Of a stretch of 64,000 bases of DNA, positions 8,500 to 53,641 are shown in pieces (the first letter of the stretch is position 1; every line of letters starts with the position of its first letter). The stretch comes from Ptychodera flava (taxonomy: Eukaryota; Hemichordata; Enteropneusta; Ptychoderidae). The notes below the pieces were generated by a model. That model worked only from the letters and a program-made list of their open reading frames with translations. It ran no database searches and had not been told where the DNA came from. The translations under genes were made by a program, and so were the position numbers. The stretch lies in contig NC_091933.1 of the NCBI RefSeq assembly GCF_041260155.1, forward strand, positions 28,583,433-28,647,432, given 5' to 3'.

Positions 8500-8519
8500 T
8501 TGACAGAATCAGTGAAGCC

Positions 8520-11181: not shown

Positions 11182-11185
11182 TTAA

Positions 11186-16594: not shown

Positions 16595-19500
16595 CTGTAT
16601 GAGTGGAAGGGAAAGAAAAAGAGAGATACCTCTGAGTAATGATGTGGATATTGATGCAACAGATGGCATCGGGTAAAATGGATCCTGTGATTTTTTTATT
16701 AAATGTCTACACTGGTGACAGACACACCCTGAAGGCAGATTATCTCAATTCTTTCGCGTTTCATGTGAAATGATGAAACACGGGTAGTAGGATTTGAGCA
16801 ATTATCGCAAAGTTCAGAAAGGAATTCATTGAATTATAGAGTTCAGCGGAGCTAGAATACAGCTACATGTAGTAGGTGCTCTGTTGTTTACAAAGATATG
16901 CAATATCATGTGGTGCATCATCTCACCTCATCTCAGATGGGACAAAAATTACACCACTGACTGGGCACACATGTAAGTGTAAATCACGGAGATTTGATGT
17001 TTTACATTCTTGGTTTGACCTTTTATCATATCACGCTAAACAATACAAGTGTAGATGTATTCCCCCCAGTGGCTTCCTGCTTGTGTTGTGTAAACTGACA
17101 TTTAAGGTAATAGGATTCTTCCATGATTAGGTTTTTTGAAGGGATTTTCTTGGAATGAAATGAAATTCAGCATAAAATGAGGTAAAAATGACACACTTTC
17201 AAAACGAATAAGTAAACTAGAAAGATCATGATGCCTTCAGACCTAGCAAGTGCTTTTGATAAATTCTAGTTTATGTCATCAGTTTGGTGTTTGGTACATA
17301 ATTAGGCCTTATTCTAGAAAGGCTCTCATAAAATATCAAAAGGACACAAAAACTTCCTGTCAACATCTTATCCCCTGAGCCCATAGTTGAAAGGTCAAGG
17401 ATTAGTGTGCAATCAGAGAATTTTTTATAATTCAGGAAATACGTCACAAGATTAAAGAAAGTAAAATGGAAAATATTATCAAGTGAGAGATGGGGAATAA
17501 AGTGGTCAAGTATAATTGACAGTTTTGGCAATGCCAGGGAATTTGTAGATGTAGAAAACGTTGAGTGCCACAGTGCTGGATAATCAGATGCATAATCAGT
17601 AATATTTGTAGGGATGACGTCTTAAAATTCACTGATATAGCCAAAACTGATATAATAGGCCCATTGTGCTATCTTTGTACCTACAGTACATGTATCTACA
17701 TGTAATTCAAACCTTGCAACTCTTCGTTTTCCGTTTAATTTTAAAGCAATTGAAACAATTTTCTCTCTGTTTAAATCAGGCATCATACCGGTACACATAT
17801 ATAATGACATTACCCTCGTAATATGTCTACAGAGTGGAAACAAAGGTAAATGGTTTAAATGGAAATCCGTAAATACGGTTCTGTTTCTCCCTGTAAAGGC
17901 CTCCTGGTTTGCACTCTGACTTCAATTTCTAACACAGAAAACAGTCAGGGTTAACCCTTTGAGCGCCAAAGTCAGTTTTTGTCTCCTTTACAAAATACTC
18001 ACTCCAGTCACATTTTTATGGACTTTTGCTAAAATTTTGATAAAAAATTGTAGCCATTGAAATTTGATGTCTATTTGCTTCAAAATTATCAAAACAAATA
18101 CAGAAAAATTCACAAAAATTGGTAAAATGTTGCACTAAAATTTTGGTGGGAAAATTTACAGCACTCAAAGGGTTAATCTGTAGGTAAAATTTGAAAACTC
18201 ACAAAACTGTGGTAGAAAATAGCTTAACTTCATGAATTTGACAGAGAAAGTTTTGCAGATAATCTTGTATGGCAAGTACAAAACCAAGGGACTCACCTTT
18301 GATTTGTTGACTCATTATCCTAGTTTTGACCACGTCAACTGGAGACGTTGTGCAGGCCGTCATGAAACCGGCGAAGAATGAACAAACAATGTGTAAGACT
18401 GGTCCTTCCTTCATCACACCGGCATTCAAAAGGAAGTGCTTTGAGTGGTCGTATGACGGAATCTGCAAGCGGAACCCACAGGCAAAATAGGAAAAAAACA
18501 ACTTATCAATCACATGATCACCCACCTGATCACTCATGTCTGAGATGAAAAGCGAACATTTTTTTGCTGGTAAACCACCCTTGCTACAAGTATAAAAGTC
18601 CGTCTGTGGGACAGGATGGAGGGTGTCCATCCAGGTATAAACTGCACTGAACCATAGACGCTTGTTTTCTCAAGGGTCAATGACTGAACATGAGAAACTT
18701 GGGATGAAATAGCAAGCTGATGGATATAATGGAAAACACGCTGGCATGTAAAGAGAAATAAAATGATTAGTGTATGTCTGTAATGGAGGAGAGTTCTTGT
18801 TCAATGTACATGTGTGACAGACATCATCTACAGTATTGCTGATGAATGGATGTTGACTGATATTGTTCCTGACTTTAACCAATGAAGACTAAACATAACT
18901 GAAAGATGTCATAAAATACTCTGATAATGTGTTTTGAAAAACTCAAAGTGACAAATCAAGCCAAGGTCCTTCTACGATATGCTTCGCTTGAATCTGGCCA
19001 TCTGATTGGCTGGAGCTAGGGTTTATATTTTCAGACCTGCACAACATTTGGAAGCTCACGCATGTTTTAAAATTGTTGCTTGAGAGCTCAACATGCCATC
19101 ATGTCAACTGTGCATGCATGCGTGTGCATTGCTCGCACTGACAAGTTCTTTTAGAGTTTGTGCTGACGCTCCTGACCTGAACCCTCATCCCAACCTGAGC
19201 TGAACCCTCATCCAAACTTCCCACCTAAATAACAACATTGTCCACTAGTATTTAACTTTATCATATTATTGTGAGGTTATAATCGGTGTGCTCTGATATT
19301 TGGTTTTGGATATACACTGTAAGACCTCTGGGGTCCACAACCCTATACCCTTGCTTGCTGTTTATAACCTCTAAATATCAACCAAACACTAGTAATTTAG
19401 CACAAGGCTCAAAAGAGAAAGACAAACTTTTGCTCAAACTTTCCTGAAGGAAACTTTGATTCATTTTCTTTCAAATAACATACAAATTTTTGTTCTGTGG

Positions 19501-22500
19501 AAATAAATGAACTTAAATTTATGAAATCAAAAAAGAGCATCATCCCTGTATGAACTTGACGGGGAAAAGCAAAATTTTAGATTTGGCAAAAATGAGTTGG
19601 TGAAAAGACCTCTTACCCCATGAGCTTTAAAATGAGCCCCAGTGGAGATAAACCAAAAAAGAATTGTAACAGTTTGAGAGTCTGAATATCTAATGCTCAA
19701 ATAACAAGTCATCGTTGATGACACAGTCCCCGCTTGTCCATTTTTTTATAATCTTTGGTGTCTAGGTAGCTGTGGTCTAGGTAGCTGTGGAATGACATTG
19801 ATGTAACGGGTGCATCAGGCCTGTGACTTGCATAATAAAATAATCTGAGGAACGTTCAATAAAATTGACCCATCTCTGCCGGTAATGACCATTGAAGGAA
19901 CTTTTGATTACATCACACATAACGATGCTTCACTGCCTCTAATGTCATGATGGCACATACTATACACATGGTTTGGTGGAATTTTAGAAATGGTATGGGA
20001 TTGGGTATGTTGTTGTAATCAGCCATTTTGGATCATATAATGAAACAAATTAATGTGCACAAGAATGCAGCCATATCACGTTTAAACAAAATCAGTCCAT
20101 CGAAGGACAGTGACCTATGTTTATGTTTCAAAGACATAAAAAAATCACACCAAAATTGAAATCAAATGGCTGTCTATTGACCATATGGATTATAGCACAA
20201 AATTAGTAGACATGCATATGTATGCCATAGTACCAAGTCTCAACAACATTGGATAAGGAATATTTGCATATGATTAAGCCTCAAAGACATGAAGAAATCC
20301 AAAAATGACCATCTGGCAGCGATATTGGGGAAAAATGACAATCTGGCAACCATATTGGAACATGTCACGAAGTACATTGACATGTATATGTATACATGTA
20401 TATGTATGCCATAGTGCATGATCTTTGTGACAAGTTTGGACAAAATCGGTGTAATGACCTTTGAATTAAGCTTCAAAGACATGCAAAATTCCAACAAAAT
20501 GGCAGTTCTGCAGCCATATTGGCTCCTATCGCAAGGTTAATTGATACATGCATATGTATGCCATAGTGCTTTGCCTTTGTGCCATGTTTGAACAGAATCG
20601 GTTCAAGGATGTTTGAGTTATGGTTCAAAGACATGAAAAAATTGCAAACAAAATGGCCGCCTCACGCCCATATTGGATCGTATCACAATATAATGCAACA
20701 TGCAGATGTAGGCCATAGTGTTATGCCTTTGTGCCAAGTTTGAACAGAATCGGTTCAAGGATGTTTGAGTTAATGGTTCAAAGACACAAAAAATTGCAAA
20801 CAAAATGGCCGTCTCACGCCCATTTTGGATCGTATCGCGAAAATTTGACGTGCATATGTAGGCCATAGTGTTATGCCTTTGTGCCAAGTTTGAACAGAAT
20901 CTGTTCAAGGATGTCTGAGTTATGGTTCAAAGACATGAAAAATTGCTAACAAAATGGCCGCCTCACGCCCATATTGGATTGTATCGCAATATAATTCGAC
21001 ATGCATATGTAGGTCATAGTGTTATGCCTTTGTGCCAAGTTTGAACAGAATCGGTTCAAGGATGTTTGAGTTATGGTTCAAAGACATGAAAAATTGCTAA
21101 CAAAATGGCCGCCTCACGCCCATATTGGATCGTATCGCAATATAAATCGATGTGCATCTGTAGGTCAAAGTGCTATGCCTTTGTGCCATGTTTAAACAAA
21201 ATTGGTTCTGCAGTGTCTGAGAAACGGCTCCCGACGGATGGACGGACTGACGGATGGACGGGACCCAATCTATAAGTCCCCGCTGGACTTCGTCCGCAGG
21301 GACTAACAATACAATGATTGCCTCTACGCATACTCTATGCATCTCTGCTTTAAAGTTACAATTTCCACATCACCTGTGTTGCTGTTAGAATTGCCGCTCT
21401 CTGGATCGTTGGACTGGCACCCCGGTAAAGACCTCGCAAACCTTCATGCTGGAATATGTCCTTGAACCCATGGAGTGTGTTCTTGTAGCGGCGACTTTGC
21501 CCTGATTGAAGCTTGCCTTCGGCTTGCATTCGAACTTTAATAAGATCTGTCGGAGTTGCAATGGAACTTCCAATTGCACCTGCACAATTGGGAACAAGTA
21601 AATCATCCATTGAAATTGTCGCTACCTTATTTTGTCTTGTGCTGAGGGGTCAAGCTGCATCATATTGAAATGCATTGTGGGTAAAAAGTTGACTTCTCAA
21701 CACGGCAAGAGTTTGGGATACTGTAGTGATCTGATAAATCAATTTTAACATAAATGTAACATAAGTCTTTTCATGGCAATAAGTTCTGTTTGGTTGTGAA
21801 ACTAGCTAAACTCATGTATCTTTTCATCTTGTTGTGTAACAGTACAATGCCTTTATTATTGACTGCAAAAATATTTATTTTGATTTTCCTGTGAAAAAAG
21901 CAGTCCATATATCTGTACTTTGTAATGATGACAACTTATTTGCTATGTGGAACTGACCACAGAAAATTTACTCAATTGAATTGGAGGTAGAATTTGAGTT
22001 TGAAGATACACTATGCTTGTATTTTCACAAAATAAAATTCCAGACTGTTCTCTGTTCTGTCAAAGATTAAGAAGAAGTGATTCACAACAGAGTGAAGAAG
22101 TTAGTGCACTATGGGTCTTGTTTTACACAGGAACATGGTCCTAAATTAGAATACATGATGTTTGGCAACTTTTTATATGAATAGTGGGTTGAGTATTCCA
22201 CACGCGGTTTCTTCAACAAAGTTGTAAAAAGTGGAAAAATCTTTATTTTTTCAACATTTAAGGGAGAAATAGACTCAGTTTTAGATTACAAGAACAAACT
22301 ACAGTTGAGGCATGCCCCTTATCAAGACAATATGTCAAGTGATTACCGCTACATTTTTTGGATGATTTTCAACATTGCAGTATGCAGCAAAACATTAACA
22401 CCCGATACTTTCACAGAGTCTAGACAGAACGAGCCTCTCTCTCTATATAAACAGCCCACGTACCCACTCCCTCCTCACAGTAAAGGCAGTCATCTTGAAT

Positions 22501-25500
22501 AAATATCATGTTATATGGTGAAGAAGAAAGATACAATGTATTGTTTCCATGGGTACACTGTTGTTATTCACATGCATGTATCTATGGTTACCTGACATTG
22601 CACCTGCTGCCACTTTCTTCCAGAGGACTGTGTGGGCTGGGTCCGTGGCTCCTAGCCACACTTTGATTGGTTCATAGGCCCCAAGTCTTATAGTACTGTA
22701 GGTGCCTTCTCGTATGAGAGAAGGGACAACTCTAATGGACAAGTGAACGTAATTGATAATAAATTGTTAATTTGAGCAAGTTTATTCTGGATTGTAGAAA
22801 CATCTTTCTATTTGATGTGTGCCTTTCTGGAGAGAGTGTAATAGAATGTGTGTTGTGAGAATCTGACAGAGAAAGGACCAAACATTGCAACCAAAGTGTA
22901 ATTAATCTATCAGATATCGTCAACACAATAAGGGTTGAGTGTACTTCACGGTTCAAGGTTGTTGAAAAGTGAGCAGTAGATAAGTACATGCTGCTGTTCT
23001 TGATTATCTAGGAATCACTACCAATTTTTCCTGAATTTCCAGTACATGCATTCCGGTACAAGTACCCTTTGTGGGGTTCCACTATCTACTCATGAGAAAA
23101 TCGTAGCAATCATACACAAATGTGATTCAAGGATGAATATGGCAGCATGTATTGGGGAAGAGCTTTGCGGTTTTCTGTGTGTTGCTATATCGGCACATGA
23201 CCTTGAGGATTTGTCAGGAAGGTTATAAGACCCTGGCTGATATTCAATACATGTATGTGGTAATGTGATGCGCACAGTTTTAATAAGTTGCATGCAGTGC
23301 CTGTATCTGTTGTTGTGAGTGTGTCTCACACAGTTCAAGTGAGAATTCAAACGACTCCTCAGATTACAAAAAAAGAGACATCACATTTCAAACAGAATTA
23401 TGTCGAACGTTGATCATGCAAGCTTGATCAGTGTTCGATATTATACACAATATATTGACTGGCCATGTGGGCAACAGCATACGTCTGTATCCCGAGGGAC
23501 TGTCAGTCACGCCCAAAAACAGATTGTTTCCCGAGGACGTAGGCCGAGGGAAACAGTCTGTTTTTGGGGGTGACCCATAGACCCGAGGGGTTAAAGACGT
23601 ATGCTGTTGCCCCAATGGCCAGTCAATATGTGTTTTGTAACACACCTCCTCCGTAGCCATGCATAAGAACGTACTATACACAAAACTTGTCGCATGTAGG
23701 CCTACAATGTAATATGTTGGAGTGATTCAGTAAGAAAATGTTTTTCCCAAAAGAATCAGCAAAACGTTCAATACACCTTTGATTATTATAGTTTTTGTCC
23801 GTATTGAGTCCTTGTTGGAAACCAAAAGCATTCAATTCTTCTTCAGAGAGTAGGATAAACCAAGAAATTTCTCGACTATAGTTTCAATCGGCCGCAGACA
23901 ACATCTTTGTTTACATTCCGGTCCGCGTTCGCGTCAATGTCGTTTTTGACGTCAGCGGGCATCATTTTTTGGAACTGATGCCTGGCAGACAACAGTTCAA
24001 ACATATGATGCCTGATGACGTCGTTTACGTAAATCAGCACAAAAATAATGCATCCCACGTGACTATTAATCAGTGAATTAGAATACAGACTGCGGATGAG
24101 GTGTGTTACAAAACTGTTTGAAATGTGATGTCTCTTTTTTTGTATCCAACAATACACATACACTGTATATTCATACCCAAAGTACTGGGATAGTCCAAAT
24201 GCTGAGAACGAAATTGTCAGGGAAAGTATCAGAATATTACGCTGAGAGAGAAGAGGAAATTCCGTGATTTGAGAAAAATAACTTACCCTTTATAGAGTCC
24301 TCCGATACCTTCATCCTTGACAATTCTGATACCTCCTTTTATGAAGCCATCATAGTATCGGTTTTTCAGTATAGCAACGCCTCTCTTGGTGGCAAGTTCT
24401 CCTTCAAGCTGCATGCGAATTTTGATCACATCGATGGGGTTGGTGACTGAAACGGAATGATTTGTGGATATGAAAAAGCATTTGTAATGCAGCATTACCT
24501 GTACCATACATGTACATTTATCACAAATACATCCACAAGCTGCTACACATCCGTGAACCCAGAATTATTTTTTACACTTGTCACAAGAGGAATCCCAGGA
24601 TTGTACTTGTTGTCACCTGCATCAACATTTTCTGAATTCATGATGATTTCCCTTCACATGAATTAGGAGAAATGTATTGGAAGCAAGTTACGTTAAAACA
24701 AACAAACAAGCTATAATCAACCTGTTTGTAGGACAAACTCCGAGAAAAGCAAGGTGGGGTTCAGTGATTTTCGATGCGGAAGCTCCTCATCATTGTCAAG
24801 GATTCAGTCTAAGATCACATTTCTATGTGCTTTGGGTTTTGAAAGAAAAGCTAAAAGCTAAAATTGTTTGTTTTTGATTCAGTGTTTTTTCCTGAGACCA
24901 TATTTTATCTGTTTTTAATAACATTCTCCTGTTAGTTAAGATGTGTATATGGTTTTAAATTGTATCATATCAGTGTTGGAGTTTGAAATTGAAAAAAAAT
25001 AAATGAATAAACAAACAAATAAATAGATAAATAAGTCATGAGACAATAATTTTCATTTAGTGGGGTGTTATAGAGATTATATAAATGCAAGGAAGTTTCT
25101 TGAAGTGAATGGAAATGTCACTTCCTGTTGCAAACTTTTTCTTCGGTACAACATGTAAGACATTATTTCAGTGAGGACTCAAACTCTTTTTTAAATCTGT
25201 AAGCATGGCTGAATTTCTCGAGATGGGTATGCAAATCGGGAGAAAAACTGGCGGGATGGAAGTGATGACGTGTCTCATTCTCCCACTAACCCAAATTTAC
25301 ACGACTTTGTCAAATATTTAATACTCCTGCACAAATCCAACCTTGTGAGTATAACGTACAATTTTTTTTGCTGATAAAGTGGAATGTATCTGTCATTATT
25401 TACCAGTGAAATTTACAGGGAAACTTCTGAAATATTTACAACTTCTAAAAATGCTGAGACGGAGGCTTAAATCTACTTACTGTCTTCGGAATCATAGGAG

Positions 25501-28500
25501 GTTATCAAATAACAGAAACGGGAAAAGAAGGTGCTATCCCTCCTTCATTCTGTGTATCAGTCATACTTAATGCACTTTGTGAAACTAATCTCCTTGTAAG
25601 AAAGAAGTTCAGCCTGTCCAGATCAAATCAGGGATATGTCTTTCATGCATTTAGGACAGAACAATATAATCCCCTGCTAGGATCCACGTTTGAAGCAAAG
25701 ATCAGTGACGGACAATGATCCGTATCATACAAATTTAACAAATGCACTGGTAGCCAAATACATAATCGTAGCTCCAAGAGATTTACAAACAGAAGTGGGC
25801 TCTGTAGTCGTGACACTTCATAAGTTTGCGACAGTTTTTTCATTTTATTCTGTGTATTACATAGAGTTTATCGTCCTGCAGTGACATTTTCTTCTGTAAT
25901 TCACGGGATGGCAAAGTGTCCTAGTAACACCCACCTGGAGTCCAATTGCCACTGAAAAATGTTCCAGAACATACAATATTTTTTTACGTCACGAAATTAA
26001 GTGAAGAAAAATGTGAAAAGTTCAATATATTTCCTTATATTTAAATAACAGCAGTGACTGACAAACAATATATACATGACTTCTATCATACTACATGTAC
26101 AGTACCAGTACGGCATGATTAACCTCTGTTGTTTGAAGAGCTAGAGAGCAGGATATTAGAGCCTTGAGTGCTCTAGTCTTGCATCTCAAATGCCATCTTT
26201 CAGCCTTCGTCCATACTCCAGGACGAAGCTTGAGGCTGAAAGACGACGTCAAGATGCTTGACTAGGAGTGCTCCTGATATGTTGAAATAAATCTTGCTAT
26301 ATGATAAACCATTGAGCAAACCAAATCATAAAATCTGTAAGGCCCTGTTTTCAATCTCAGGGGATTGTTTTCATATATCACAAAGTATCAAGGTAAACAA
26401 CTATACATGTGTAGATGATACGTGCTGGATGTCCATTCACTGCAGTGCATGATCTCATGCCTTGAAATCAGATTCATATTAATATAACGATTTTTCAGGG
26501 ATTTCTAACTTTTTCAACCAATGCGGCATTGTATAATTTTCAAAGCTCTCAGAATGATTTGTGACTGGAAAAGTTTGCTGTCGACATAGTTACTCTTCAT
26601 TTATTTTTTCAGCAAACAGTGAAAAAACGATAACCCAAAATATATGGGCCTGTCTGTAGGAAAACAGTAAAACGTGCAGAGGTTGGTGTACATGTACATG
26701 TACCTTGTTCATGACCCAGTTTCCTCATACGCTGTACATACTATCTTTACTCTATTTGACAATTTTATAAACATTGACTGTATTTCTGGGAAGCAAACAT
26801 TGACTGATACATGCTTTGATGCACGTACCGTGTTGGGGTTGTTTACTTATGGTGTCCAATCCATGCCAAAATTACTACTTTGATTTTACAACTTGACATG
26901 CAACTCCGTTTTCTATTTCACTACTCAACATGCTATTCCACTACTCCGTATCCTATTCCACAACTGTGTATGCTATTCCATTTTCTATTTCACAATTCAA
27001 CATGCTCTGTCGAATTTCATTTCACAACACAACATGCCATTGCAAATCCTATTTCACTACTCAACATGCTATTCCACTACTCCGTATCCTATTCCACAAC
27101 TGCGTATGCTATTCCATTTTCTATTTCACAATTCAACATGCTCTTTCGAATTTCATTTCACAACACAACATGCCATTGCAAATCCTATTTCACTACTCAA
27201 CATGCTATTCCACTACTCCGTATCCTATTCCACAACTGCGTATGCTATTCCATTTTCTATTTCACAATTCAACATGCTCTTTCGAATTTCATTTCACAAC
27301 ACAACATGCCATTGCAAATCCTATTTCACTACTCAACATGCTATTCCACTACTCCGTATCCTATTCCACAACTGCGTATGCTATTCCATTTTCTATTTCA
27401 CAATTCAACATGCTCTTTCGAATTTCATTTCACAACACAACATGCCATTGCAAATCCTATTTCACAACTCAACATGCTCTTTCGAATTTCATTTGACAAC
27501 ACATCATGCCATTGCAAATCCTATTTCACAATCCCATTCTAAACCTAGCTCTGCGGAGCAGGGCATTGTTACTGACTATCGAACAAGATTCAAAATGGCG
27601 GACGCGAAATGGTCCCCTCGCACAGAGAGAGAAATGCGAACTTTGCACAAGTCTAAAAACGCAGCTTAACAAATTGTGTATGTAAACAAGATGAGCGTGC
27701 TCGAAAACTAGGAATGATCACGATTTTAAATTAAAAATTGGCTGTTTTTGGAAAGGAAACTGCGCGCTGCAATCAGCAGTTTTGTCTATGGTGCACCGTG
27801 CATGGGAGGCTTATCGTGAAAGACCGAGATTTACTATATGGCGTCTGATACGGATATGGTCCCATCGCAAAGATGAAAGTGGGCTTTGTGTAAGTTCAAA
27901 AGCACAGCTTAGCTCATCGTGCATCTAGACAAGTTGAGCGTGCTCAAAATAGGAGATCGATCACGATTTTGGGTGAAAAAAACCGATTGTTTTCGGTGGA
28001 GAAACTGCGCGTTGCAACCAGTGGTTGGTTTTGCCTATGCGGTCAGCAGGGCTGTGGTGGGAGGCCTTTAGCCGGCAAGGGGTGGACCATTGGGGAGTGG
28101 ACAAATTTTCGAAAAAAAAATTCCCCACAACATTTCAATAAACAAGTCATCGTTGATGACACAGTCCCCACTTGTTAATGGGTACTTTGATTACATGTCC
28201 TAAGAGGATAGAGTCCTCTTCATTAATTGAGACATGCCCAAGTTTTGGCTAAGGACACGAAAAAATTGTAACAAAATGGCTGCCATGCAGCCATATTGGA
28301 TCATATCAAGAAACAAATTGACAAACATATGTATGACATAGTTTAATGTCCTTGTACCAACTTTGAATAAATCGGTTAAGATATGCCTTAGAGTATTATG
28401 GCCCTCGACAGGAAAAAATCGTAATAAAATGGCCGCAAGGCAGCCATATTGGATCGTATCACATAACAAATTGACATGCATATGTATGACATTAGTCAAT

Positions 28501-31500
28501 CTCCTTGTACCAACTTTGAATAAAATCCGTTGAAACATGTCTGAGTTATTGCTCTGTACATGAAAATATCGTAATAAAATGGCTGCCTAGCGGCCATACT
28601 GGATCGTATCACATAACAAATTGACGTACATATGTAAGACATAGGTCAATGTCCTTGTACCAACTTTGAATAAAATCGGTTGAGATTTGCCTGAGTTATG
28701 CCTCTGCATATGAAAAATCGTAATAAAATGGCCACACAGCAGCCATATTGGATTGTATCACAAAACAAATTGACATGCATATCTATGACATTGGTCAATG
28801 TCCTTGTACCAACTTTGAATAAAATCAGTTAAAACATGTCTGAGTTATGGCACTGTATATGAAAAATCGTAATAAAATGGCCGCCTGGCGGCCATATTGG
28901 ATCGTATCACAAAACAAATCGACATGCATATCTATGACATTGGTCAATGTCCTTTTACCAACTTGGAATAAAATCGGTTGAAACATGTCTGAGTTATGGC
29001 TCTGTACATGAAAAAATCGTAATAAAATGGCCGCCTGGCGGCCATATTGGATCGTATCACAAAACAAAATGACGTGCATATCTATGACATTGGTCAATGT
29101 CCTTGTACCAACTTTGAATAAAATCGGTTGCAACATGTCTGAGATCTGGCTCTGTACATGAAAAAATCGTAATAAAATGGCCGCCTGGCGGCCATATTGG
29201 ATCGTATCACAAAACAAATGACGTGCATATCTATGACATTGGTCAATGTCCTTGTACCAAATTGGAATAAAATCGGTTGAAACATGTCTGAGTTATGGCT
29301 CTGTACATGAAAAAATCGTAATAAAATGGCCGCCTGGCGGCCATATTGGATCGTATCACAAAACAAAATGATGTGCATATCTATGACATTGGTCAATGTC
29401 ATTGTACCAACTTTGAATAAAATCGGTTGAAACATGTCTGAGTTATGGCTCTGTACATGAAAAATCGTAATAAAATGGCCGCCTGGCGACCATATTGGAT
29501 CGTATCACAAAACAAATCAACGTGCATCTGTATGACATATGAAGTAATCCTTGTACCAAGTTTGAATGAAATCGCTTCTTGCATCTCTGAGATATCTGCG
29601 TGAACGGACGGACGGACGCACGGACGGACGCAGCACGGACGCACACACGCACGCACGCACGCACGCACGGACGCACACACGCACGGACATGACCAAACCT
29701 ATAAGTCCCCCCGGACGGTGTCCGTGGGGACTAAAAAAATAAGCCAAAGAAACTTGAGAAAAATTGATGACGCACTTAGGTAAAAGGGAAAAAAATCCGT
29801 CAAAAGTTACTTTCTGAAACACATTTTATTTTAGTCTGCATCAGATATACTATGATTCTTTGGCCAAGAGGGGGGGGGGGGGAGGGGAGATCTGAAGGGT
29901 ATAATCGTGGCCAGTAAATGAAGTAACTTTTTATTTTATAACTTTTTGTTCTTTTTATCATATTTTTTCTTTCACTGAAGTTTGGCATCGTAAAGTAATT
30001 CGAGATATAAGATAATATAAAAATCATATCTGTGATATCGATTGTTAACAACTGTATTGTGGGTCTTTACACTATGATTAATTAACAAGAATTCAACAAT
30101 TTAGGCAGCTTGCATCGGTACATAAAATGGGAAATATTCACCAACCATATGACAAACAATCAGTTTCCCACCACAGCCCTGCTGACCGCCATAGGCAAAA
30201 CCAACCACTGGTTGCAACGCGCAGTTTCTCCACCGAAAACAATCGGTTTTTTTCACCCAAAATCGTGATCGATCTCCTATTTTGAGCACGCCTGTCTAGA
30301 TGCACGATGAGCTAAGCTGTGCTTTTGAACTTACACAAAGCCCACTTTCATCTCTCTATGCGATGGGACCATATCCGTATCAGACGCCATATAGTAAGGG
30401 GAGAACCATTTGATTTCTAGGGGGGATATGGAGGATTTTGAGGAAAAAAAATTGTCACCAGGTGAGAGAGAAGAAAAAAATTGATCCTGTCATGGCCTGA
30501 GAAAAAAAATTGTCATAACAGACAGAAGAGAAAAAAAAATTGTCACAATGCACCAGAAATAAGCAAAATTTGGAAACCTTATTCTCATGTATTCTTTGCC
30601 GGCGCGCCGCCATAGGCGGCGCAAATGTTTTACCACAAGCAATTCTTATGTTTCTTTTCCCAGCACTTATGATATAAGCATGCACTACATAGGTCTACTT
30701 TACACCTCAGTACACTCAATGTTTTCCTTCCCTTTTCTAACCCAAGAAATCATATTTCAGGATTTCTGTTGCAATATCTCAATGGCATTGGCACTATAAG
30801 GGGACTATTTGACTTCTGTAAATTGTGAAAATTTAAAACACAAGACAGGAGTCAATAAACTAAGTGTTAAAACAAAATATTATTTTCTCAATATAAATTT
30901 GTCAGAAAGATGTACCTTGACAATAAAAAATTGAGGAACAACAAATATAATGAAATACAATGTGTGAGCCTTGTTTTTCTGACCACAAACACCGGATCGC
31001 AAACATACCATATTCAGGTTTTCATTAGAAGCTGGCAGCTGGAGAAATGACAAAAGGAGATCACAGATTTTCTGTTCCTGTATATTCATTTGTCTTCAGT
31101 CTCTGGCAAACAGAACTGTTTTTCACAAATTGTATTGTCATTGTTTGGTTGTTGAATATTGTGACTCAAAAACTGATCATGCATAAAATGTAAAAAAATA
31201 TTGCAGTGTTCAATGTCATTTTCAAACAGTTTTACTGAGTGCAAAATAAACGAGTGCAAAATAAACTGAAACTCCTCTCAGATTGCACTATTAAACACAT
31301 CAATTTCTCAAAATTTCCAATACGAGAGGGGAAACCCCCTCTCGTGCTCTGCCCCTTGATTCTAACAGTTTCACTTAGTAAAAAAATTAGAAAACACCTC
31401 TCAGATTGCACCAGACTGCACCATTGCACACATCAACATCTAAAAATTTCCATGCAAGATAGGGGAAAGCCCCTGTGACACTTTCCCCGGGGCCCCTAAG

Positions 31501-34500
31501 CCTCTTTCATGTTCTCCCGTGTACGGTACTTTAAATTCTGCCCGGTCAGATATCCTAGTGAAAACCCTGTCATAATATCCATCCAAATTAAACAATATAC
31601 TATATGATTAGATACTGCGTGATCTTTTATATCTTTATTTTATTGTGACTTTGAATTTCATTTTGATGTGTTCACCTTTTTGAACCATCATGAGATAATT
31701 ATGATAGTCTAGCAGGGTACATCAGGATTTGAAAGGTCTTTAAAAAAAGACTTTACTGTGCTGTATTTTGTAAATTTTACAATTTCGTGTATTGGTATTT
31801 AACTTTTCTAAGTGGGGGGATCAGTCAAAATTTCAGAGTTAGAGAGGGAGGTTACTCAAATTCATCATGGTTGGCGAGGGGGGGTCACTCGAAATTTCGG
31901 AGTTTCAGGCCGTAAATAATGACAGCTCCCTTATATACAATGCATTACAAACTTGATGACCAATAAAAAAAAATTGCACTGCTTCTCCATTTGAAAAAAA
32001 AAATGATGCAGGTCTGACAGTAGAAAAAAGAAATTGCTGTCACTCTGACAGGAAAAAAAAATTGCTCCCATACCCACTTCCTCCATACCCCCCCCCCAGA
32101 AATCAAATGGTTCTCCCCTAAATCTCGGTCTTTCACGATAAGCCTCCCACGCACGGTGCACCATAGACAAAACTGCTGATTGCAGCGCGTGATCAATCCT
32201 AGTTTTTGAGCACGCTCATCTTGTTTAGATACACAATTTGTTAAGCTGCGTTTTTAGACTTGCGCAAAGTTCGCATTTCTCTCTCTGTGCGAGGGGACCA
32301 TTTCGCGTCCGCCATTTTGAATCTTGTTCGATAGCCAGTAGCAATGCCCTGCTCCGCAGAGCTAGGTTTAGAATGGGATTGTGAAATAGGATTTGGAATG
32401 GCATGATGTGTTGTCAAATGAAATTCGAAAGAGCATGTTGAGTTGTGAAATAGGATTTGGAATGCCATGATGTGTTGTCAAATGAAATTCGAAAGAGCAT
32501 GTTGAGTTGTGAAAGGATTTGGAATCAAATCAGGCAGTTGTGGAATAGGATACGGAGTAGTGGAATAGCATGTCGAGTAGTGAAATAGGATTTGCAATGG
32601 CATGTTGTGTTGTGAAATGAAATTCGAAAGAGCATGTTGAATTGTGAAATAGAAAATGGAATAGCATACGCAGTTGTGGAATAGGATACGGAGTAGTGGA
32701 ATAGCATGTTGAGTAGTGAAATAGGATTTGCAATGGCATGTTGTTTTTGTGAAATGAAATTCGAAGAGCATGTTGAATTGTGAAATAGAAATGGAATAGC
32801 CTACACAGTTGTGGAATAGGATACGGAGTAGTGGAATAGCATGTTGAGTAGTGAAATAGAAAACGGAGTTGCATGTCAAGTTGTAAAATCAAAGTAGTAA
32901 TTTTGGCATGGATTGGACACCATGGTTGTTTACTCACCGGATTTTTGAACATGCAAAATCCTTTTTCTGCCAAGATCATTCATATACCAGTAGTCTACAA
33001 AGAACCTTCAACCCCTTCAATGAACAAGTTTTACTAAAAAGGTTTTGCTGTTTAGCAAATTTTGACCTTTATGCGAAGAAATGTGGGTGGAAAAGCTAAA
33101 TTAGATTTCCCTTCTCAGGGCAAGTCACTAAAAATTGACATATGCATTAAGATGACTGTGACAGACACCACCACAACAACACACGGTTGTAACATTATCA
33201 GGTCAATTGTACAGTATGTGACATTTTTGTCTGTGAAGATAAAGTCTGGGAAAAAAATAACAGGTCTTCAAGTGCTCCTGTTCACCCCATTCCCTGTAAA
33301 CAGGTCTACACTCACCATTTATAACAATGGGTTTGGGCCAAACCATGATGGTGAAAGGGTTAAAATGTGCTATTTGGGAAATGTTACGCTTTACTGGTTT
33401 TAACTTGAATAACAACAGATGAACCTGACAGGAAAAGTGTTAAAGAGATTACAATGACATGGCGTTCTATGTCAGACAGGAAATGCTCTGTGAAGTTTTC
33501 CCTGACAAAAGGGGTGTAGCTGTTACATTTCAATGTTTCTTTTGTTTTTTCATTATACTAGCATATTAACACTGCCATTGCTGACGATTCATTTGTCATT
33601 CTTGTCATTCAGGATATGCAGTCTGACGAGTCACATAATGACTGACACACAGTTAAAACTAAATGACCAATGAGGCTCTACACCCAAAGCACAGTCCCGC
33701 TATCAGTGGATAGAGGGACTGTGCCAAAAGCAAGCATTACAACTGGAAATTTTATTGTTGGTATGGTTTAATTTTGTTTGTAAGCCTTTGTCCTTTGCCC
33801 ATGTACTCTCTTTACCTTATTCTATCTCTTCCTACATATTTTATTCTTTAATTGAAATGGCATGGTGTTTCTCTTATTCATGAGTGAGGACAGTTGTAGC
33901 AGGATTTCTCCAAGGGATCAATCAATCAATCAATCAACAAAATCAATCAATTGGCCGATCACTATCTTACCAGTTCATGATGGCATACAAGGTGGGGGTG
34001 AGGTGGTGGTTGGGTGGGTATGCAGTCTAACCTGATAAAACTAACTTTTTTCAGTAACAACAGGCCGCATCTCTGCATGTCTGTTGGCATGTCTGTGATA
34101 TTTTTTTTCTTTCGTAGAAATTGTGAACTGGCATACCAATTTAAATCTCCATTGTAATAAATCACTGTTCTCTTGCTTTAAATCTATAGGAAAAAGTACA
34201 TGTAGCATGCCATATGTTTGTTTTTGTACACTCTATGATTGTACTTACATGCAAGGCGCAAGTTCACCTTCTGTCTTTGTGATACAATGCCTCTAGCCAG
34301 GCTTTTCTAATCATTCCGAATCATGTAGTATTAGACTGTGTGCCTGAATGAAAAAGTAAACTTTTCACTGTGTTTGGGCACTATCTTTCCCAATATGAGA
34401 CAAAATCATGTTCTTATAATGTCAATTTAATGTGGTTGAACAGAATCTTGTGTCCTGCAGGTAGAAAGCTTTCTCAAAATATCTGAACGTAATCCCATAT

Positions 34501-37500: not shown

Positions 37501-38223
37501 GGCCAGCCTGCGCCTTGCATGCCTTGGGTACAAGACAACTACTACACTACACAAAACTCTCCGTGCCTTCCCTGGGTACAGATTTCACTAACACAGGTGA
37601 TGTACTTGAAAGTAAATCGTTTATTATATTTTGACGGGCAAAATGAAAAGAAATGGCTGGGGCGAGCCAGCTCTCTTTAGCATTCCAAGATTAGAAATAT
37701 ATCTACATATATATGGTACTCTGACACACATGGACCTCAACAAAGTCTATTAGGAGTATGGGTGCACGGCGACCCAATTAGGGTAGCAGTCAATTTCCAC
37801 ACAGTAATTTATGCACTACTGATAGATATAGTTGACGGTATCAAAACTGATTTCTCATTTTTTTCTAATCGTACAAAAATTCCGCTAAGAAAAGTGACTA
37901 TACTCAAGCCACGGTTACTAGTTAAACCACAGTTTGTGGAATGAACATGGTTAAAAACCGTGCTGATCGAAACAAACGTTTTCAAGGGTCTCTCGTGTGG
38001 CATGTTATGGTCCCGTTACACGTTCGTTCATGATTGATCATTGAATGTGTTGGTCGAAGGACGACAGGACAGTCGGGACCTCATTGTAAAGCCTGCGAGT
38101 CACGCAAGCCCTAGTTTTCAATTCCTGTCCCGGTACAAGTAAACACTTACCGAAGGCAGCACACATGCAGCTTGTACCGGCAAGGAAGAACCGGACACCG
38201 TCACTTTCCCTGTTGGCAGCCAT
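16407..38223 (-). CDS. Mitochondrial carrier (SLC25/uncoupling-protein type, ucpB-like), six exons, 310 aa
   Basis: Inner-mitochondrial-membrane solute carrier. The exons 38151-38223, 24287-24446, 22592-22731, 21374-21579, 18297-18462 and 16407-16594 have GT-AG junctions in matching phase. They total 933 nt, i.e. 310 codons plus TAG, a normal length for this six-helix family. All three repeats keep the P-x-[DE]-x-x-[KR] matrix gate: PIDVIK 28-33, PTDLIK 134-139, PVDVVK 234-239. The cytoplasmic gate is also complete: YEPIK 97-101, YDHSK 197-201, FEQFR 298-302. The sequence groups with proteins labelled 'mitochondrial substrate carrier family protein ucpB-like' in marine invertebrates, close to UCP4/UCP5 and SLC25A30. 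Transported substrate and any proton-leak activity cannot be inferred. Intron 1 (13.7 kb) and the other introns are loaded with transposons, but every exon is intact. Confidence 0.93.
17955..18172. mobile_element. 218-bp TTAA-target MITE (CCCTTTGAG family)
   Basis: TTAA at 17951-17954 is followed by CCCTTTGAGCGC. The right end reads, in reverse, CCCTTTGAGTGC and is followed by TTAA at 18173-18176. It sits in the last intron of the carrier gene, 124 bp from exon 5. Non-coding, piggyBac-like. Confidence 0.82.
18297..18462 (-). CDS. Carrier exon 5
   Basis: Acceptor CGCTTGCAG. The exon encodes IPSYDHSKHFLL and the third signature TSPVDVVKTR, and ends QQIK with donor GTGAGT. Confidence 0.92.
19704..21306 (+). 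mobile_element. Pearl/Helentron-like element of ~150-bp tandem repeats, copy 1
   Basis: The left end ACAAGTCATCGTTGATGACA continues CAGTCCCCGCTTGT, includes the hairpin GTCATC-GTT-GATGAC, and is shared with the copy at 28142. It is followed by a leader and tandem units of about 150 bp with AAAATGGCCGCCTCACGCCC (unit starts near 20649, 20801, 20950 and 21101, with more decayed ones before). After these come a GACGGATGGACGG microsatellite and the terminal hairpin AAGTCCCCGCTGGAC...GTCCGCAGGGACT, ending CTAA. Left arm, core repeats, tetranucleotide microsatellite and terminal hairpin are the plan of molluscan pearl and Helentron-derived (HINE) elements. The right end is 67 bp from carrier exon 4. 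Confidence 0.7.
21374..21579 (-). CDS. Carrier exon 4
   Basis: Acceptor TTGTGCAG. The exon encodes GAIGSSIATPTDLIKVRMQ and the second repeat to ILTATQ, ending in phase 0 with donor GTGATG (weaker than the others). Confidence 0.92.
21655..21845 (+). repeat. Dispersed repeat, copy A
   Basis: ATATTGAAATGCATTG...GGGTA, then GACTTCTC, then CAAGAGTTTG, AAGTTCTGTTT and ATCTTTTCA recur in the same order at 51783-51945. It is a decayed interspersed repeat of unknown type, located in carrier intron 3. Confidence 0.6.
22592..22731 (-). CDS. Carrier exon 3
   Basis: Acceptor CCATTAG completes Gly78. The exon reads VVPSLIREGTYSTIRLGAYE (79-98) through helix 2 to AAGAMS, with donor GTAACC. Confidence 0.92.
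23365..24144. mobile_element. 780-bp TIR element with perfect 31-bp ends
   Basis: The segments 23365-23395 and 24114-24144 are exact inverted repeats (outer sequence TACAAAAAAAGAGACATCAC). A further inner match, TTTTGTAACACACCTC, continues the right TIR directly. In the left arm it is displaced to 23633, which shows that a palindromic insert (23396-23632) split the left TIR. It lies in carrier intron 2. No transposase frame. Confidence 0.75.
23396..23632. mobile_element. Palindromic insert nested in the left TIR
   Basis: Arms from 23451 (ATTGACTGGCCATGTGGGCA) to 23630 are complementary over about 80 bp with few mismatches. Shared blocks include CAACAGCATACGTCT and CCCAAAAACAGA-TGTTTCCC. A loop of about 15 bp is left, so this is a foldback-type hairpin. 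Confidence 0.75.
24287..24446 (-). CDS. Carrier exon 2
   Basis: Acceptor TTTCAG, then TCACCAACCCC. The split codon gives Val25, followed by TNPIDVIKIRMQ. The exon ends LYKG at donor GTAAGT. It holds the first carrier signature and the matrix helix with DEGIGGLYKG. Confidence 0.92.
24833..25045 (+). mobile_element. 5'-truncated LINE 3' end, copy B
   Basis: Starts at GTTTTGAAAGAAAAGCTAAAAG (last codons ...KEKLKAKIVCF, then stop). The 3' UTR then shares TGTATATGGTTTTAAATTG, TATCATATCAGTGTTGGAGT and an AAATAAATGAATAAAC tail with the longer copy at 57931. Same strand. It lies in carrier intron 1, about 390 bp upstream of exon 2 in gene orientation. Confidence 0.75.
25046..26151. other. Intron 1 sequence, nothing recognised
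   Basis: No conserved frame, TIR or tandem array was seen. Confidence 0.4.
26152..26281. repeat. ~130-bp imperfect palindrome
   Basis: Arms pair around the loop ATACTCCA: TTTCAGCCTTCGTCC / GGACGAAG..GGCTGAAAG, extending through GCATCT and CTAGTC out to ATATTAG. This is a foldback hairpin in carrier intron 1. Confidence 0.75.
26837..26847 (+). repeat. Left target-site duplication of the foldback element
   Basis: GGTTGTTTACT, repeated directly at 32924-32934. Depending on where the terminus is placed (a T at 26848 has no partner), the duplication is 10 or 11 bp. Confidence 0.8.
26849..28062 (+). repeat. Left arm of the foldback element
   Basis: An outer ~70-bp unique end is followed by the 136-bp tandem array to about 27540, then a ~520-bp inner part containing AAAATGGCGGACGCGAAATG and two related GAGCGTGCTCAAAA segments. 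Homology with the right arm stops at GCTGTGGTGGGA. Confidence 0.82.
26921..27540 (+). repeat. 136-bp tandem repeat, ~4.5 copies
   Basis: CTACTCAACATGCTATTCCA recurs at 26921, 27057, 27193 and 27329, exactly 136 bp apart, with a final partial, rearranged unit. Copies are almost identical, so the array is young or homogenised. The plus strand is poor in G and lacks stop codons in all three frames for about 600 bp. Confidence 0.92.
28063..28141 (+). repeat. Fragment resembling a Harbinger-like end
   Basis: AAGGGGTGGACCATTGGGGA, then a TTCGAAAAAAAAATT tract, resembles the TIR and A-rich subterminal segment of the element at 30398. It may be a truncated relative at the edge of the foldback core. 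Confidence 0.35.
28142..29734 (+). mobile_element. Pearl/Helentron-like element of ~150-bp tandem repeats, copy 2
   Basis: Has the same left end as copy 1 (ACAAGTCATCGTTGATGACA, then CAGTCCCCACTTGT). About nine units follow at near-constant spacing (AAAATGG at 28273, 28426, 28576, 28725, 28874, 29024, 29174, 29323 and 29472; 149-153 bp). Most units contain the palindrome ATGGCCGCC-T-GGCGGCCAT. Then comes an ACGG/ACGC microsatellite (29599-29690) and the end hairpin AGTCCCC-C-CGGAC..GTCCG-T-GGGGACT, then CTAA-type end at 29734. Inserted in the core of the foldback element. No Rep/helicase frame. Confidence 0.72.
29599..29690 (+). repeat. ACGG/ACGC tetranucleotide microsatellite
   Basis: Runs of GACGGACGGACG then GCACGCACGCACG, located between the tandem core and the terminal hairpin, as in pearl-type elements. 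Confidence 0.85.
29735..30166. other. Unmatched remainder of the foldback core
   Basis: AT-rich sequence with a 13-base G run near 29869. No coding frame; not shared by the two arms. Confidence 0.5.
30398..32118. mobile_element. PIF/Harbinger-like non-autonomous element, 1,721 bp
   Basis: TIRs begin GGGGAGAACCATTTGATTTC at both ends and continue imperfectly (G-run, then TATGGAGG) to about 40 bp. TAA lies on both sides (30395-30397 and 32119-32121). The undamaged opposite arm of the foldback element reads GCCATATAGTAAATCTCGG, with a single TAA, so the empty site is known. A 3-bp TWA duplication is characteristic of PIF/Harbinger. Subterminal blocks repeat GAAAAAAAATTG at both ends. There is no transposase or Myb-like frame. 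Confidence 0.88.
31240..31932 (+). repeat. Internal repeat related to the element at 38580-39362
   Basis: Shares CTCAGATTGCAC, ACACATCAATTTCTCAAAAT, the GAGAGGGGAAACCCCCTCTC hairpin, CATGCAAGATAGG, AGCAGGGTACA, CAGGATTTGAAAGGTC and an end reading AATGACAGCTCCC with the second copy. The two Harbinger-like elements are thus relatives, or one is nested in the other. Confidence 0.7.
32924..32934 (+). repeat. Right target-site duplication of the foldback element
   Basis: GGTTGTTTACT directly after the terminal CCAT, identical to 26837-26847. Confidence 0.8.
33277..33364 (-). repeat. Dispersed repeat, copy 2 (see 15929)
   Basis: Read on the minus strand: TTAACCCTTTCACCATCATG, then GTTATAAATGGTGAGTGTAG and GGGGTGAACAGG. 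Confidence 0.6.
33691..33724. repeat. Strong stem-loop GCACAGTCCC...GGGACTGTGC
   Basis: Arms GCACAGTCCC and GGGACTGTGC enclose a second stem CTATC/GATAG with loop AGTG. A looser version occurs at about 41416-41448 (CACAGTCCCTTTTATCCACG, then AGGGACAGTG). Confidence 0.7.
35197..35687. mobile_element. Possible MITE with 15-bp inverted ends and C-rich tandem interior
   Basis: CAGGTGCAGCCAACG at 35197-35211 is exactly inverted at 35673-35687. The interior from about 35330 is a degenerate repeat of CCCTGCCCT + AAAATT segments. It gives long open frames on both strands with G/F-rich, low-complexity translations and is not credible as protein. Confidence 0.5.
35688..38144. other. 5' part of carrier intron 1, nothing recognised
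   Basis: AT-rich, no TIR pair or tandem array noticed, no recognisable exon on either strand. Confidence 0.4.
38151..38223 (-). CDS. Carrier exon 1
   Basis: 24 codons plus one base, beginning MAANRESDGVRFFLAG, with donor GTAAGT at 38145-38150. The ATG lies in ACAAGATGGCTGCC, which also matches the YY1 motif. The first half of transmembrane helix 1 is encoded here. Confidence 0.9.
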
Positions 38224-38579: not shown

Positions 38580-39362
38580 GGGGGCTGTCATGATTTACGG
38601 CCTGGGGGTCGGAGGAATTCGAATGTGGGTGGGGTCACGCAAAATTGAAAACATCAAAATGTGGAGAGGAAGGAGGGGGTACTCAATTTTTTGTGCAAAA
38701 GAGATTTAAAAACATCTCAGATTGCGCCATTACACACATCAATTTCTCAACATTTCGATACCAGAGGGGGAACCCCCTCTCGTGCTCTCCCCATTAGGGT
38801 GTTCTAACAGTTTTACTCGATAAAAAAAATTAAGAACAAATTGCACCTGACTGCACCATTGCACACATCAATTTCTCAAAATTTTCCATGCAAGATAGGA
38901 CTTTTCCCCTCAGCCTCCTCCCCCTCCGTACTTTCGAATTCTGCCCAGTCAGATATAGGCCTTAGTCATGATACCCATTCAAATTAAACAATACTAGTAC
39001 TATCTATGATAGCTTGATACTGGTTCACTGGTTGTAGCGTGAGCTTTAATAGGCCCATCTGTATTTTGTTGTCACTTTATATTTCGTTTTGTTGGCTTCA
39101 CCTATTTCGACCGTCATGAGATAACCAACGATAATCCAGCAGGGTACACCAGGATTTGAAAGGTCTTTACTATTGCTGTACATGTTTTTTGTAAATTTTA
39201 CAAATATTGGTATTTAACTTTTCCAAGTGGGGGCAGGGGTCAGTCAAAATTTCTGAGTTAGGGGGGTATTCAAATTCATCACGGTTGGCGGGGTATTTAC
39301 TCGAAATTTCGGAGTTTCCCATGAAATTCACCGACCCCTGGCAGTAAACAATGACGGTTCCC
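38580..39362 (+). mobile_element. Harbinger-like TIR element, 783 bp
   Basis: The left end GGGGGCTGTCATGATTTACG, then GCCTGGGGGTCGG, matches the reversed right end (GGGAACCGTCATTGTTTAC, then TGCCAGGGGTCGG) over about 36 bp. Flanks are TTA on the left and TTG on the right, an imperfect 3-bp duplication. The interior is homologous to 31240-31932. It lies just upstream of the carrier gene. Confidence 0.7.
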
Positions 39363-39889
39363 TTGCATTTTTTTTCAAAATCTCTATGGCTTTACAAAAA
39401 GGATAATCATTTTTGCTTTCCTGACCCCCCCCCCCAAGTTTGACCTCTCTTCCCAAGACCTAATTTTCAGCTCCTTATCCGCTTCAGAAGACTACAATAT
39501 TTTGCGGGGTATAGCATAGGAGTATACTCGATAAATAATAAACTTCTTCATTTCAATACACTCAAAAGAGAGTGAGCAGATCTCTGCGATGTCTATTACG
39601 GAGTCAGTAACTGGCCACGGCTATACTTTTCTTAAATCCAGGGGTGGCCACTTTTTGCATAAATGTTTTTATGGCCTTCCTGAACAATACATGTATTGCT
39701 ATTTCAAAATGCACCTAGACTAGATGTACGCAGTTTGGGCATTTCGCTTGCAAGTGAACGAATTGATAGGCTGCTCTAGATATAGGTGTCCGAAGGCACA
39801 CATTATAATTACGTCAAAGTACTCTGCAAAGATCGAAAACGACGTGTCTCGGTATAACTGCTAGCGACAGCCGGTAGGAATGGAATGAG

Positions 39890-40670
39890 ACGAAGATGCT
39901 GCCGATGATACCGATGATGATGATTTAGCGGTGGTGATGATAACAGCGATGGTGGCGGTCTTAATGATGATGTTTATGATGTGGTGATGTGCAACGATGG
40001 TGGCGGTGTTAAAGATTACTGTGATTTGATGATGTTGCTGTGTTAATGATGATGTTTATGATGGGGTCATGGCAACCATGGTGGTGGTGTTAATGATGAT
40101 TATGACGTGGTGATGACAACGATGGTGGCGGTGTTAATGACAATGATAATGATAAGGTGATGACAACGATGGTGGCGGTGTTAAGGCCCAAAAAATAAAT
40201 TGTGCTGTTCCGATAACATGGTTTTCAAAAATGGGAAGGTAGGTCGGCAGGAATTGTTTTTCTAAAATATTTTTAAATGTGCATTTTTCAGGGGTTCAGG
40301 GCGGTCAAACACTGGCCACATTTCCAGAAAAATGTATCATACATATAAAAAGAAAAAAAAATCATAAGCAAAATTCAAATGCCAAGTAACGAACGCGTGA
40401 TTTTACGGGCTTTTCTTTCTTTTTTTTCACTTACGTGTTTACGTAACTCTCAAAAGTTTGGGGTCGGTAGGTAAAAAATCAGGCAGGTCGGGTTATCGGA
40501 ACAGCACAATGTTTTTTGTTTGGCGTAGTGGGGATGTTTATGATGTGGTGATGACAACGATGGTGGCGGTATTAATGATGATTATGATGTCGTGATGTGG
40601 CGGTGTTAATGATGATGATTATGATGTGGTGATGTGCAACGATGGTGGCGGTGATAAAGACGATGATGTA
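39890..40670 (+). repeat. GATGATG-type minisatellite interrupted by a MITE
   Basis: About 40-50-bp units built on GTGATGACAACGATGGTGGC, GGTGTTAATGATGAT and TATGATGTG occur at 39890-40182 and resume at 40531-40670. Unit boundaries are irregular. Confidence 0.75.
40185..40524. mobile_element. ~335-bp MITE inserted in the minisatellite
   Basis: TIR core TTGTGCTGTTCCGATAAC is present at both ends in inverted orientation, with A-rich outer ends starting GGCCC / CGCC. Flanks are TAA on the left and TAG on the right, a possible decayed 3-bp duplication. The minisatellite is continuous if the insert is removed. Confidence 0.65.
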
Positions 40671-41149
40671 ATGAAAGAAAGTTTTCTTAATCATGGTGAT
40701 GAAAGCGCTGCTGTCAAGACCAGAAAGCGTGACCACATAATGAGTATTGACAAAAGTGCAGATGATGCTAAATTATGAAGTAACAGATGGCCAAAATAGA
40801 CAGAGCTGTATGTTGAATGGACAAAAGTTCATCACGAGGTCAAGGAAAGTTGAAGGTCAAATTTTAGAGAACGGCTTAGAGAGGGTCACATTTTATGATA
40901 AAAGCTGTGCCAAGATTCCTTCCGGCCATCCCTCGTGATAACAGACGAATCTTTCTCATACCGACTTTTTCCACGAAGGTTTTCACTAATACTCCATCTT
41001 ATAACCGTATGTAAGATGATCTTGTACAGCGAAATCTGCTGCTGCATTTGAAAAGATCTGACACAAATTATTTATTAATTTTCGTTTACCCCGCAGAACT
41101 ATATGAACAATGTCATTGCCGACGATGAACAAGAAACATCATCACCACC
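40671..41149. other. Nothing recognised
   Basis: Unique-looking sequence; no supported exon. Confidence 0.4.
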
Positions 41150-45816: not shown

Positions 45817-45820
45817 TTAA

Positions 45821-46005: not shown

Positions 46006-46009
46006 TTAA

Positions 46010-53637: not shown

Positions 53638-53641
53638 TTAA

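What the first reader, a model, noticed from the sequence alone, without database searches (positions are those of the whole stretch)
26837..32934. Nested foldback transposon with recoverable insertion history
A ~6.1-kb foldback element has 10-11 bp target duplications and ~1.2-kb arms carrying a 136-bp tandem repeat. Its core contains a second element (28142-29734, ~150-bp repeats). Its right arm contains a Harbinger-like element (30398-32118). The order of events follows from the sequence: the foldback arrived in the intron, then the Harbinger-like element hit the right arm, since the left arm keeps the single-TAA empty site. Arms built of tandem repeats with no transposase match FB/TU foldback elements. 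I know of no described family with this 136-bp unit.
Basis: partly seen in the sequence, partly recalled or inferred. Interest (0 to 1): 0.85.

Follow-up and report, generated by a model that had tools for sequence, protein, structure and literature searches.

The report
Foldback transposon in an acorn-worm intron
This is a jumping DNA element with two long mirror-image arms, sitting in an intron of an acorn-worm gene and carrying two other mobile elements inside it; it is a real and tidy new example of a known kind rather than a new kind.

Summary
A 6,075-bp foldback element (26849-32923) lies in intron 1 of a ucpB-like carrier gene of the hemichordate Ptychodera flava, flanked by an exact 11-bp duplication. 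Its arms are about 1.2 kb and 97.9% identical at ungapped columns. A PIF/Harbinger-type element (TAA duplication, 28-bp TIRs) sits in the right arm; the left arm keeps the empty site.

Three corrections. (1) The core element is on the minus strand and has the parts of a Helentron-derived HINE; a second copy lies at about 19703-21306. (2) The 136-bp unit is a higher-order repeat of a 19-bp motif: 23 copies in the left arm, 16 in the right, 1 in the rest of the window, spaced mainly 20 or 32 bp. That is the layout of candidate transposase-binding arrays. (3) The empty site shows only that the Harbinger-type element came after the two arms existed, not after arrival in the intron.

No transposase match was found among the 10 ORFs tested. 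An 11-bp TSD with repetitive long TIRs fits Mutator (MULE) foldbacks best and P/Galileo poorly. The genome was not held, so copy number, family limits and the autonomous partner are untested.

The parts
26837..26847 (+). Left target-site duplication GGTTGTTTACT (26848 is an extra T; the right copy is followed by C)
26849..28062 (+). Left arm of the foldback: 64-bp outer part, 136-bp array (26913-27478), inner part that contains a diverged ~243-bp direct duplication (167 of 240 aligned columns identical)
26913..27478 (+). 136-bp x 4.2 array, a higher-order repeat of a 19-bp motif (ATTYCACAACTCAACATGC) at 20- and 32-bp spacing; 23 motif copies in the arm
27831..27833 (-). Empty site for the Harbinger-type element: single TAA, read on the reverse strand
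28141..29734 (-). HINE-type (Helentron non-autonomous) element in the core: 5' subTIR AGTCCCCAC plus inverted repeat, GTCC/GTGC-rich microsatellite, 149-bp x 9.0 repeats, 3' subTIR, palindrome GTCATCAACGATGAC; no TSD seen
30164..32923 (-). Right arm of the foldback, interrupted by the Harbinger-type element; about one tandem unit shorter, lacking 42-bp and 5-bp stretches present in the left arm
30398..32118 (.). PIF/Harbinger-type element without recognised coding sequence, 28-bp TIRs GGGGAGAACCATTTGATTTC..., TSD TAA at 30395-30397 and 32119-32121; about 31254-31937 resembles an element at about 38583-39371
32432..32859 (-). 135/136-bp x 3.2 array of the right arm (16 motif copies in the arm)
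32924..32934 (+). Right target-site duplication GGTTGTTTACT

Best explanation
A non-autonomous foldback DNA transposon that moved by cut-and-paste, with a transposase supplied in trans, into intron 1 of a ucpB-like carrier gene, leaving an 11-bp (or 12-bp) target duplication. Each arm begins with a terminal sequence (ATGGTGTCCAATCC) followed by an array of a 19-bp motif, which I infer to be transposase-binding sites; the 136-bp unit is the amplification unit of that array. The trans-acting transposase is most likely of the Mutator (MULE) superfamily. A Harbinger-type element inserted in the right arm after the arms had become inverted copies, and a HINE occupies the core. Shown: anatomy, duplications, empty site, motif array, intron position. 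Inferred: trans mobilisation, motif function, MULE membership (about 0.6).
For: Exact 11-bp flanking duplication at the ends of outer inverted repeats whose first 100 bp are identical; 20 of 200,000 random pairs reach 11 bp. Arms 97.9% identical at ungapped columns and paired unit by unit: the outermost units L1 and R1 share a variant that the other units lack, and L2, L3, L4 and R2 are identical. Motif with up to 5 mismatches: 23 in the left arm, 16 in the right, 1 in the rest of the window on both strands; mean in 200 mononucleotide shuffles of the left arm 0.085, maximum 2. First motif 34 bp from each end. No Pfam match above cut-off in the 10 ORFs tested and no relative of one arm ORF (26884-27666) at E <= 0.001 among 581 candidates. 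MULE TSDs are 8-11 bp (PMC6446971, passages); Muta1, called a type-2 foldback, has a short terminal motif plus subterminal tandem repeats (PMC5225508, passages); Tetris has ~220-bp TIR repeats and was placed in Mutator on TSD length and earlier suggestions (PMC4079207, passages); Tm1 has arrays of a ~14-bp motif and a Phantom-like transposase (PMC3169594, passages).
Against: No transposase and no second copy were seen; one copy cannot define a family. The animal Mutator-type foldbacks in the passages read have duplications of 8-10 bp (Muta1 8-9, Tetris 8-10, Tm1 8-10), so 11 (or 12) is at or beyond the edge. The motif was taken from the arm itself, so its abundance there is descriptive, and it carries no binding evidence. 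The right arm departs from the regular spacing in 3 of 15 steps (31, 51 and 64 bp). The trans-mobilised reading assumes other copies that could not be looked for.
Confidence: 0.82

Rival explanations
1. A foldback mobilised by a P-superfamily (Galileo-like) transposase.
For: [quoted passage not shown]
Against: Galileo/P duplications are 7-8 bp (recalled); here an exact 11 bp.
Confidence: 0.1
2. The passengers are older than this insertion: the foldback already carried the HINE in its core and the Harbinger-type element in its right arm when it entered the intron.
For: The empty site in the left arm orders the Harbinger-type insertion only against arm formation; nothing in the window orders the HINE. 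Cores of Muta1 derivatives and of Tetris are variable (PMC5225508 and PMC4079207, passages).
Against: A longer element with two passengers would be expected to move less readily (general knowledge); no copy was available to test it.
Confidence: 0.3
3. Not a transposed unit: a local inverted duplication of a satellite-like array, with the flanking 11-mer coincidental.
For: The arms are tandem arrays, which can be duplicated by recombination; no second copy was seen.
Against: Flanking 11-mers abut the ends of the inverted repeat; 20 of 200,000 random pairs match that long. The arms also contain about 500 bp of non-array sequence in mirror order.
Confidence: 0.03
4. The Harbinger-type element was once in both arms and was precisely excised from the left one.
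For: Some Harbinger elements excise precisely (recalled).
Against: Insertion of one copy into one arm needs one event; insertion before arm copying plus excision needs more.
Confidence: 0.05

Closest known systems
Tetris, foldback of Drosophila virilis (PMC4079207, passages)
   Same: Apparently non-autonomous; TIRs with an outer flanking domain, ~220-bp tandem repeats and an inner domain; variable non-coding middle; no transposase copy found; suggested to belong to Mutator.
   Different: 136-bp unit built of a 19-bp motif; duplication 11 bp against 8-10; no sequence comparison was possible.
Muta1 and relatives, MULEs of Aedes aegypti (PMC5225508, passages)
   Same: Short terminal motif followed by a subterminal tandem array in a long TIR (described there as type-2 foldback).
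   Different: Muta1 codes for a transposase; its TIR is 145 bp with nine 12-bp repeats and an 8-9-bp TSD; here the arms are ~1.2 kb and no transposase was recognised.
Tm1, Mutator/Foldback family of root-knot nematodes (PMC3169594, passages)
   Same: Composite TIRs with variable numbers of a short motif, differing between the two ends; nested elements in some copies.
   Different: Motif of 13-15 bp, duplication mostly 9 bp, asymmetric terminal motifs outside the inverted repeat.
Cg_HINE / pearl elements of bivalves (PMC7492417, passages) - for the core element
   Same: subTIR and its inverted repeat, GTCC/GTCY-type microsatellite, central tandem repeats (about 160-168 bp in the examples seen; 149 bp here), 3' subTIR and palindrome.
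   Different: Hemichordate host; central repeat sequence not compared with the oyster ones; insertion site not proven here.

Membership tests
Foldback elements (structural class) | Very long terminal inverted repeats containing tandem arrays | tested here: met
   Arms ~1.2 kb, 97.9% identical at ungapped columns, 136-bp arrays
Foldback elements (structural class) | Target-site duplication at the outer ends | tested here: met
   11 bp exact
Foldback elements (structural class) | Several dispersed copies with the same ends | not testable with these tools
   No genome held; no other match of 60 bp or more in the 64-kb window
Mutator superfamily (MULE) | TSD of 8-11 bp | tested here: met
   11 bp, or 12 with one change; range from PMC6446971 passages. 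At the upper edge.
Mutator superfamily (MULE) | MULE transposase in an autonomous copy with the same ends | not testable with these tools
   None recognised in this copy; the genome was not available
P superfamily / Galileo | TSD of 7-8 bp (recalled) | tested here: not met
   11 bp exact
P superfamily / Galileo | THAP-containing transposase | not testable with these tools
   No autonomous copy available
HINE / Helentron (core element 28141-29734, minus strand) | subTIRs, inverted repeat next to the 5' subTIR, 3' palindrome | tested here: met
   AGTCCCCAC and complement, GGGGACTT, GTCATCAACGATGAC; the same plan in a second copy at about 19703-21306
HINE / Helentron (core element 28141-29734, minus strand) | Insertion between T residues in T-rich DNA without TSD | tested here: inconclusive
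   5' side is a run of T, the 3' end reads CTTGTT then TATTG; no duplication seen, but no empty site was available
HINE / Helentron (core element 28141-29734, minus strand) | Autonomous Helentron (Rep/helicase) with the same ends | not testable with these tools
   Genome not held
PIF/Harbinger (30398-32118) | 3-bp TWA duplication (recalled; 3-bp also in the listed abstract of PMC2213677) and TIRs | tested here: met
   TAA on both sides, empty site in the left arm, 28-bp TIRs
PIF/Harbinger (30398-32118) | Harbinger transposase or Myb-like gene | tested here: inconclusive
   No Pfam match above cut-off in the 6 sent of the 19 ORFs of 45 aa or more; fits a non-autonomous copy but does not prove membership

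The most novel reading that the evidence does not exclude
The arms are a phased multi-site docking array. A 19-bp transposase-binding motif starts 34 bp from each end and recurs at 20- and 32-bp steps, and 136 bp is about 13 turns of B-DNA (10.46 bp per turn), so each amplified unit keeps its sites on nearly one face of the helix. The foldback form would then be maintained because whole-turn units are the amplifications that keep the docking surface, in a transposase lineage that makes 11-12-bp duplications.
Probability: 0.12. Interest if true: 0.55.

Novelty: new member of a known kind. Interest (0 to 1): 0.32.

Why it matters
None of the papers listed by the foldback searches (titles and abstract starts; 20 of 26 listed, 16 of 17) presents a foldback element from a hemichordate in its title or abstract start, and the word foldback does not occur in the main text of the P. 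flava genome paper (PMC11175523). If the family exists in copies, the short-motif array with near-helical spacing is a testable statement of what repetitive foldback arms are for; the Galileo paper calls this untested for Foldback and Phantom elements (PMC3688188, passage). The element also shows a HINE-borne ~150-bp tandem array sitting inside another mobile element.

Tried and rejected
Own-genome search: none held. DNA patterns from the arms in viral contigs: 0 places for each of two patterns. Harbinger TIR 17-mer in viral contigs: 13 places. A HINE 3' pattern in viral contigs: 0. Blastn of HINE, Harbinger-type element and left arm against the 133 loci then held gave no alignment at E 1e-3. 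Protein search with one open frame of the left arm: none of 581 candidates at E <= 0.001; the array is open in all three + frames because its sequence lacks stops, which I do not read as coding. Rfam gathering scan of the window: 0. tRNA scan: 0. Paper search for Helentron/HINE gave the two papers used (20 of 43 listed); a Phantom/Mutator search listed 18.

Rejected: reading the ORFs of the arrays as genes; an assembly artefact, since the arms differ by substitutions and indels; the claim that the empty site dates the Harbinger-type element after the intron insertion.

Full report
HOST AND PLACE. A single-exon protein in the window (8475-10049) has P. flava proteins as its best named relatives: of 15 hits, 1 is the window's own (P0001), 5 are named P. 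flava, 2 are named from other hemichordates and 7 have no name; only the 7,990 candidates sharing most words were scored. The carrier exons match a protein named 'mitochondrial substrate carrier family protein ucpB-like [Ptychodera flava]', P0016, on a contig of the same length (47,311,355) as P0001. All 310 residues of P0016 map exactly in six blocks on the minus strand: 38152-38223, 24286-24447, 22590-22730, 21374-21577, 18295-18462 and 16410-16592. So 26849-32923 lies in intron 1. The genome itself was not held.

THE FOLDBACK. The element spans 26849-32923 (6,075 bp) between exact copies of GGTTGTTTACT; one further base differs. Exact matches of 11 bp or more arose in 20 of 200,000 random position pairs in the window, probably in simple repeats (my inference). 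The arms match at 1006 of 1028 ungapped columns, with 197 gap columns; the first 100 bp are identical. The arms pair unit by unit: L1 and R1 share a variant that the other units lack, while L2, L3, L4 and R2 are identical; R3 is rearranged, with 17-21 differences from the others. This says that the array existed before the two arms became copies of each other, or that they have been converted since. The inner arm contains an old direct duplication of about 243 bp (167 of 240 aligned columns identical).

THE 136-BP UNIT. It is a higher-order repeat. A 19-bp motif (ATTYCACAACTCAACATGC, up to 5 mismatches) occurs 23 times in the left arm and 16 in the right, and once in the rest of the window on both strands. 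Spacings in the left arm are 32 bp (14 of 22) and 20 bp (8 of 22); in the right arm 32 (7 of 15), 20 (5 of 15), and one each of 31, 51 and 64. The first copy lies 34 bp from each end, inside the 64-bp outer part. The motif came from the arm, so the numbers inside the arm are descriptive; the controls are the rest of the window and 200 shuffles of the left arm (mean 0.085, maximum 2). At 10.46 bp per turn, 20 bp is 1.91 turns, 32 bp 3.06 and 136 bp 13.0; the turn length was chosen after seeing the unit, so this is a hypothesis only.

THE CORE ELEMENT. On the minus strand, 28141-29734 reads: run of T, AGTCCCCAC, inverted repeat, microsatellite rich in GTCC and GTGC, nine ~149-bp repeats, AAGTGGGGACT, palindrome GTCATCAACGATGAC, CTTGTT. 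A second copy at about 19703-21306, in the intron between 18462 and 21374, has the same ends (34 of 35 bases in the block beginning AACAAGTCATC on the + strand) and repeats 73-75% alike. These parts, in this order, are those described for Cg_HINE and pearl elements in oysters (PMC7492417, passages) and for Helentron HINEs (PMC4067079, passages). No empty site and no autonomous Helentron could be looked for.

THE HARBINGER-TYPE ELEMENT. 30398-32118, TIRs of 28 bp at 96%, TAA on each side, empty site in the left arm. No Pfam match above cut-off in the 6 ORFs sent (one match, GP67, at E 0.22 and below its cut-off). Its right part (about 31254-31937) contains two stretches 79-81% alike to an element at about 38583-39371 that has different, imperfect ends; so the Harbinger-type element may carry part of yet another element.

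ORDER OF EVENTS. Shown: the arms became inverted copies before the Harbinger-type insertion in one of them (barring precise excision from the other). Not shown: whether that, or the HINE, came before or after the foldback reached this intron.

MECHANISM AND CLASS. Cut-and-paste movement in trans is inferred from TSD, inverted ends and lack of a recognised transposase. MULE TSDs are 8-11 bp (PMC6446971, passages); Muta1, Tetris and Tm1 share the plan of a terminal part plus tandem arrays in the TIRs (passages), with duplications of 8-10 bp. Galileo shows that arm repeats can be extra transposase sites (passages), but its duplication length (recalled) does not fit. I put MULE at about 0.6.

VERDICT. 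Real, clean and correctly bounded; a new member of a known kind, with a testable idea about phased arm repeats. Interest is limited because a single copy was seen and the parts are each of known type.

Noticed in passing
about 19703-21306 (-): Second HINE-type element with the same ends as the core element and 151-bp x 5.4 repeats, in another intron (18463-21373) of the same carrier gene.
   Followed up: yes
11181-11374, 45817-46009, 53638-53829, part at 10459-10543: Short ~200-bp repeat, the three longer copies 90-93% alike, with ends like TTAAAGGTATACTGTCACCTGT / ACAGGTGACTGTATACCTTTAA: looks like a MITE with TTAA-type ends (piggyBac- or Kolobok-like by recall).
   Followed up: partly
about 38583-39371: DNA-transposon-like element with imperfect inverted ends (GGGGGCTGTCATGATTTACGGCC...) related to the right part of the Harbinger-type element.
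   Followed up: partly
8475-10049 (+): Single-exon acyltransferase-like protein (Pfam Condensation, AATase); of 15 hits 5 are P. flava proteins at 52-61% identity, 2 other hemichordates, 7 unnamed, 1 the window's own.
   Followed up: partly
57919-58599 (+): 226-aa open frame that looks like the C-terminal part of a non-LTR retrotransposon reverse transcriptase (by recall); no Pfam match at E 0.1.
   Followed up: no
1514-1579, 4208-4253, 4335-4382: Interstitial telomere-like CCCTAA tracts.
   Followed up: no
54831-55148 (-): Open frame with a prokineticin-type domain (Pfam E 1.7e-6).
   Followed up: no
39904-40680: Degenerate GATGATG-rich minisatellite (units of about 37-81 bp).
   Followed up: no
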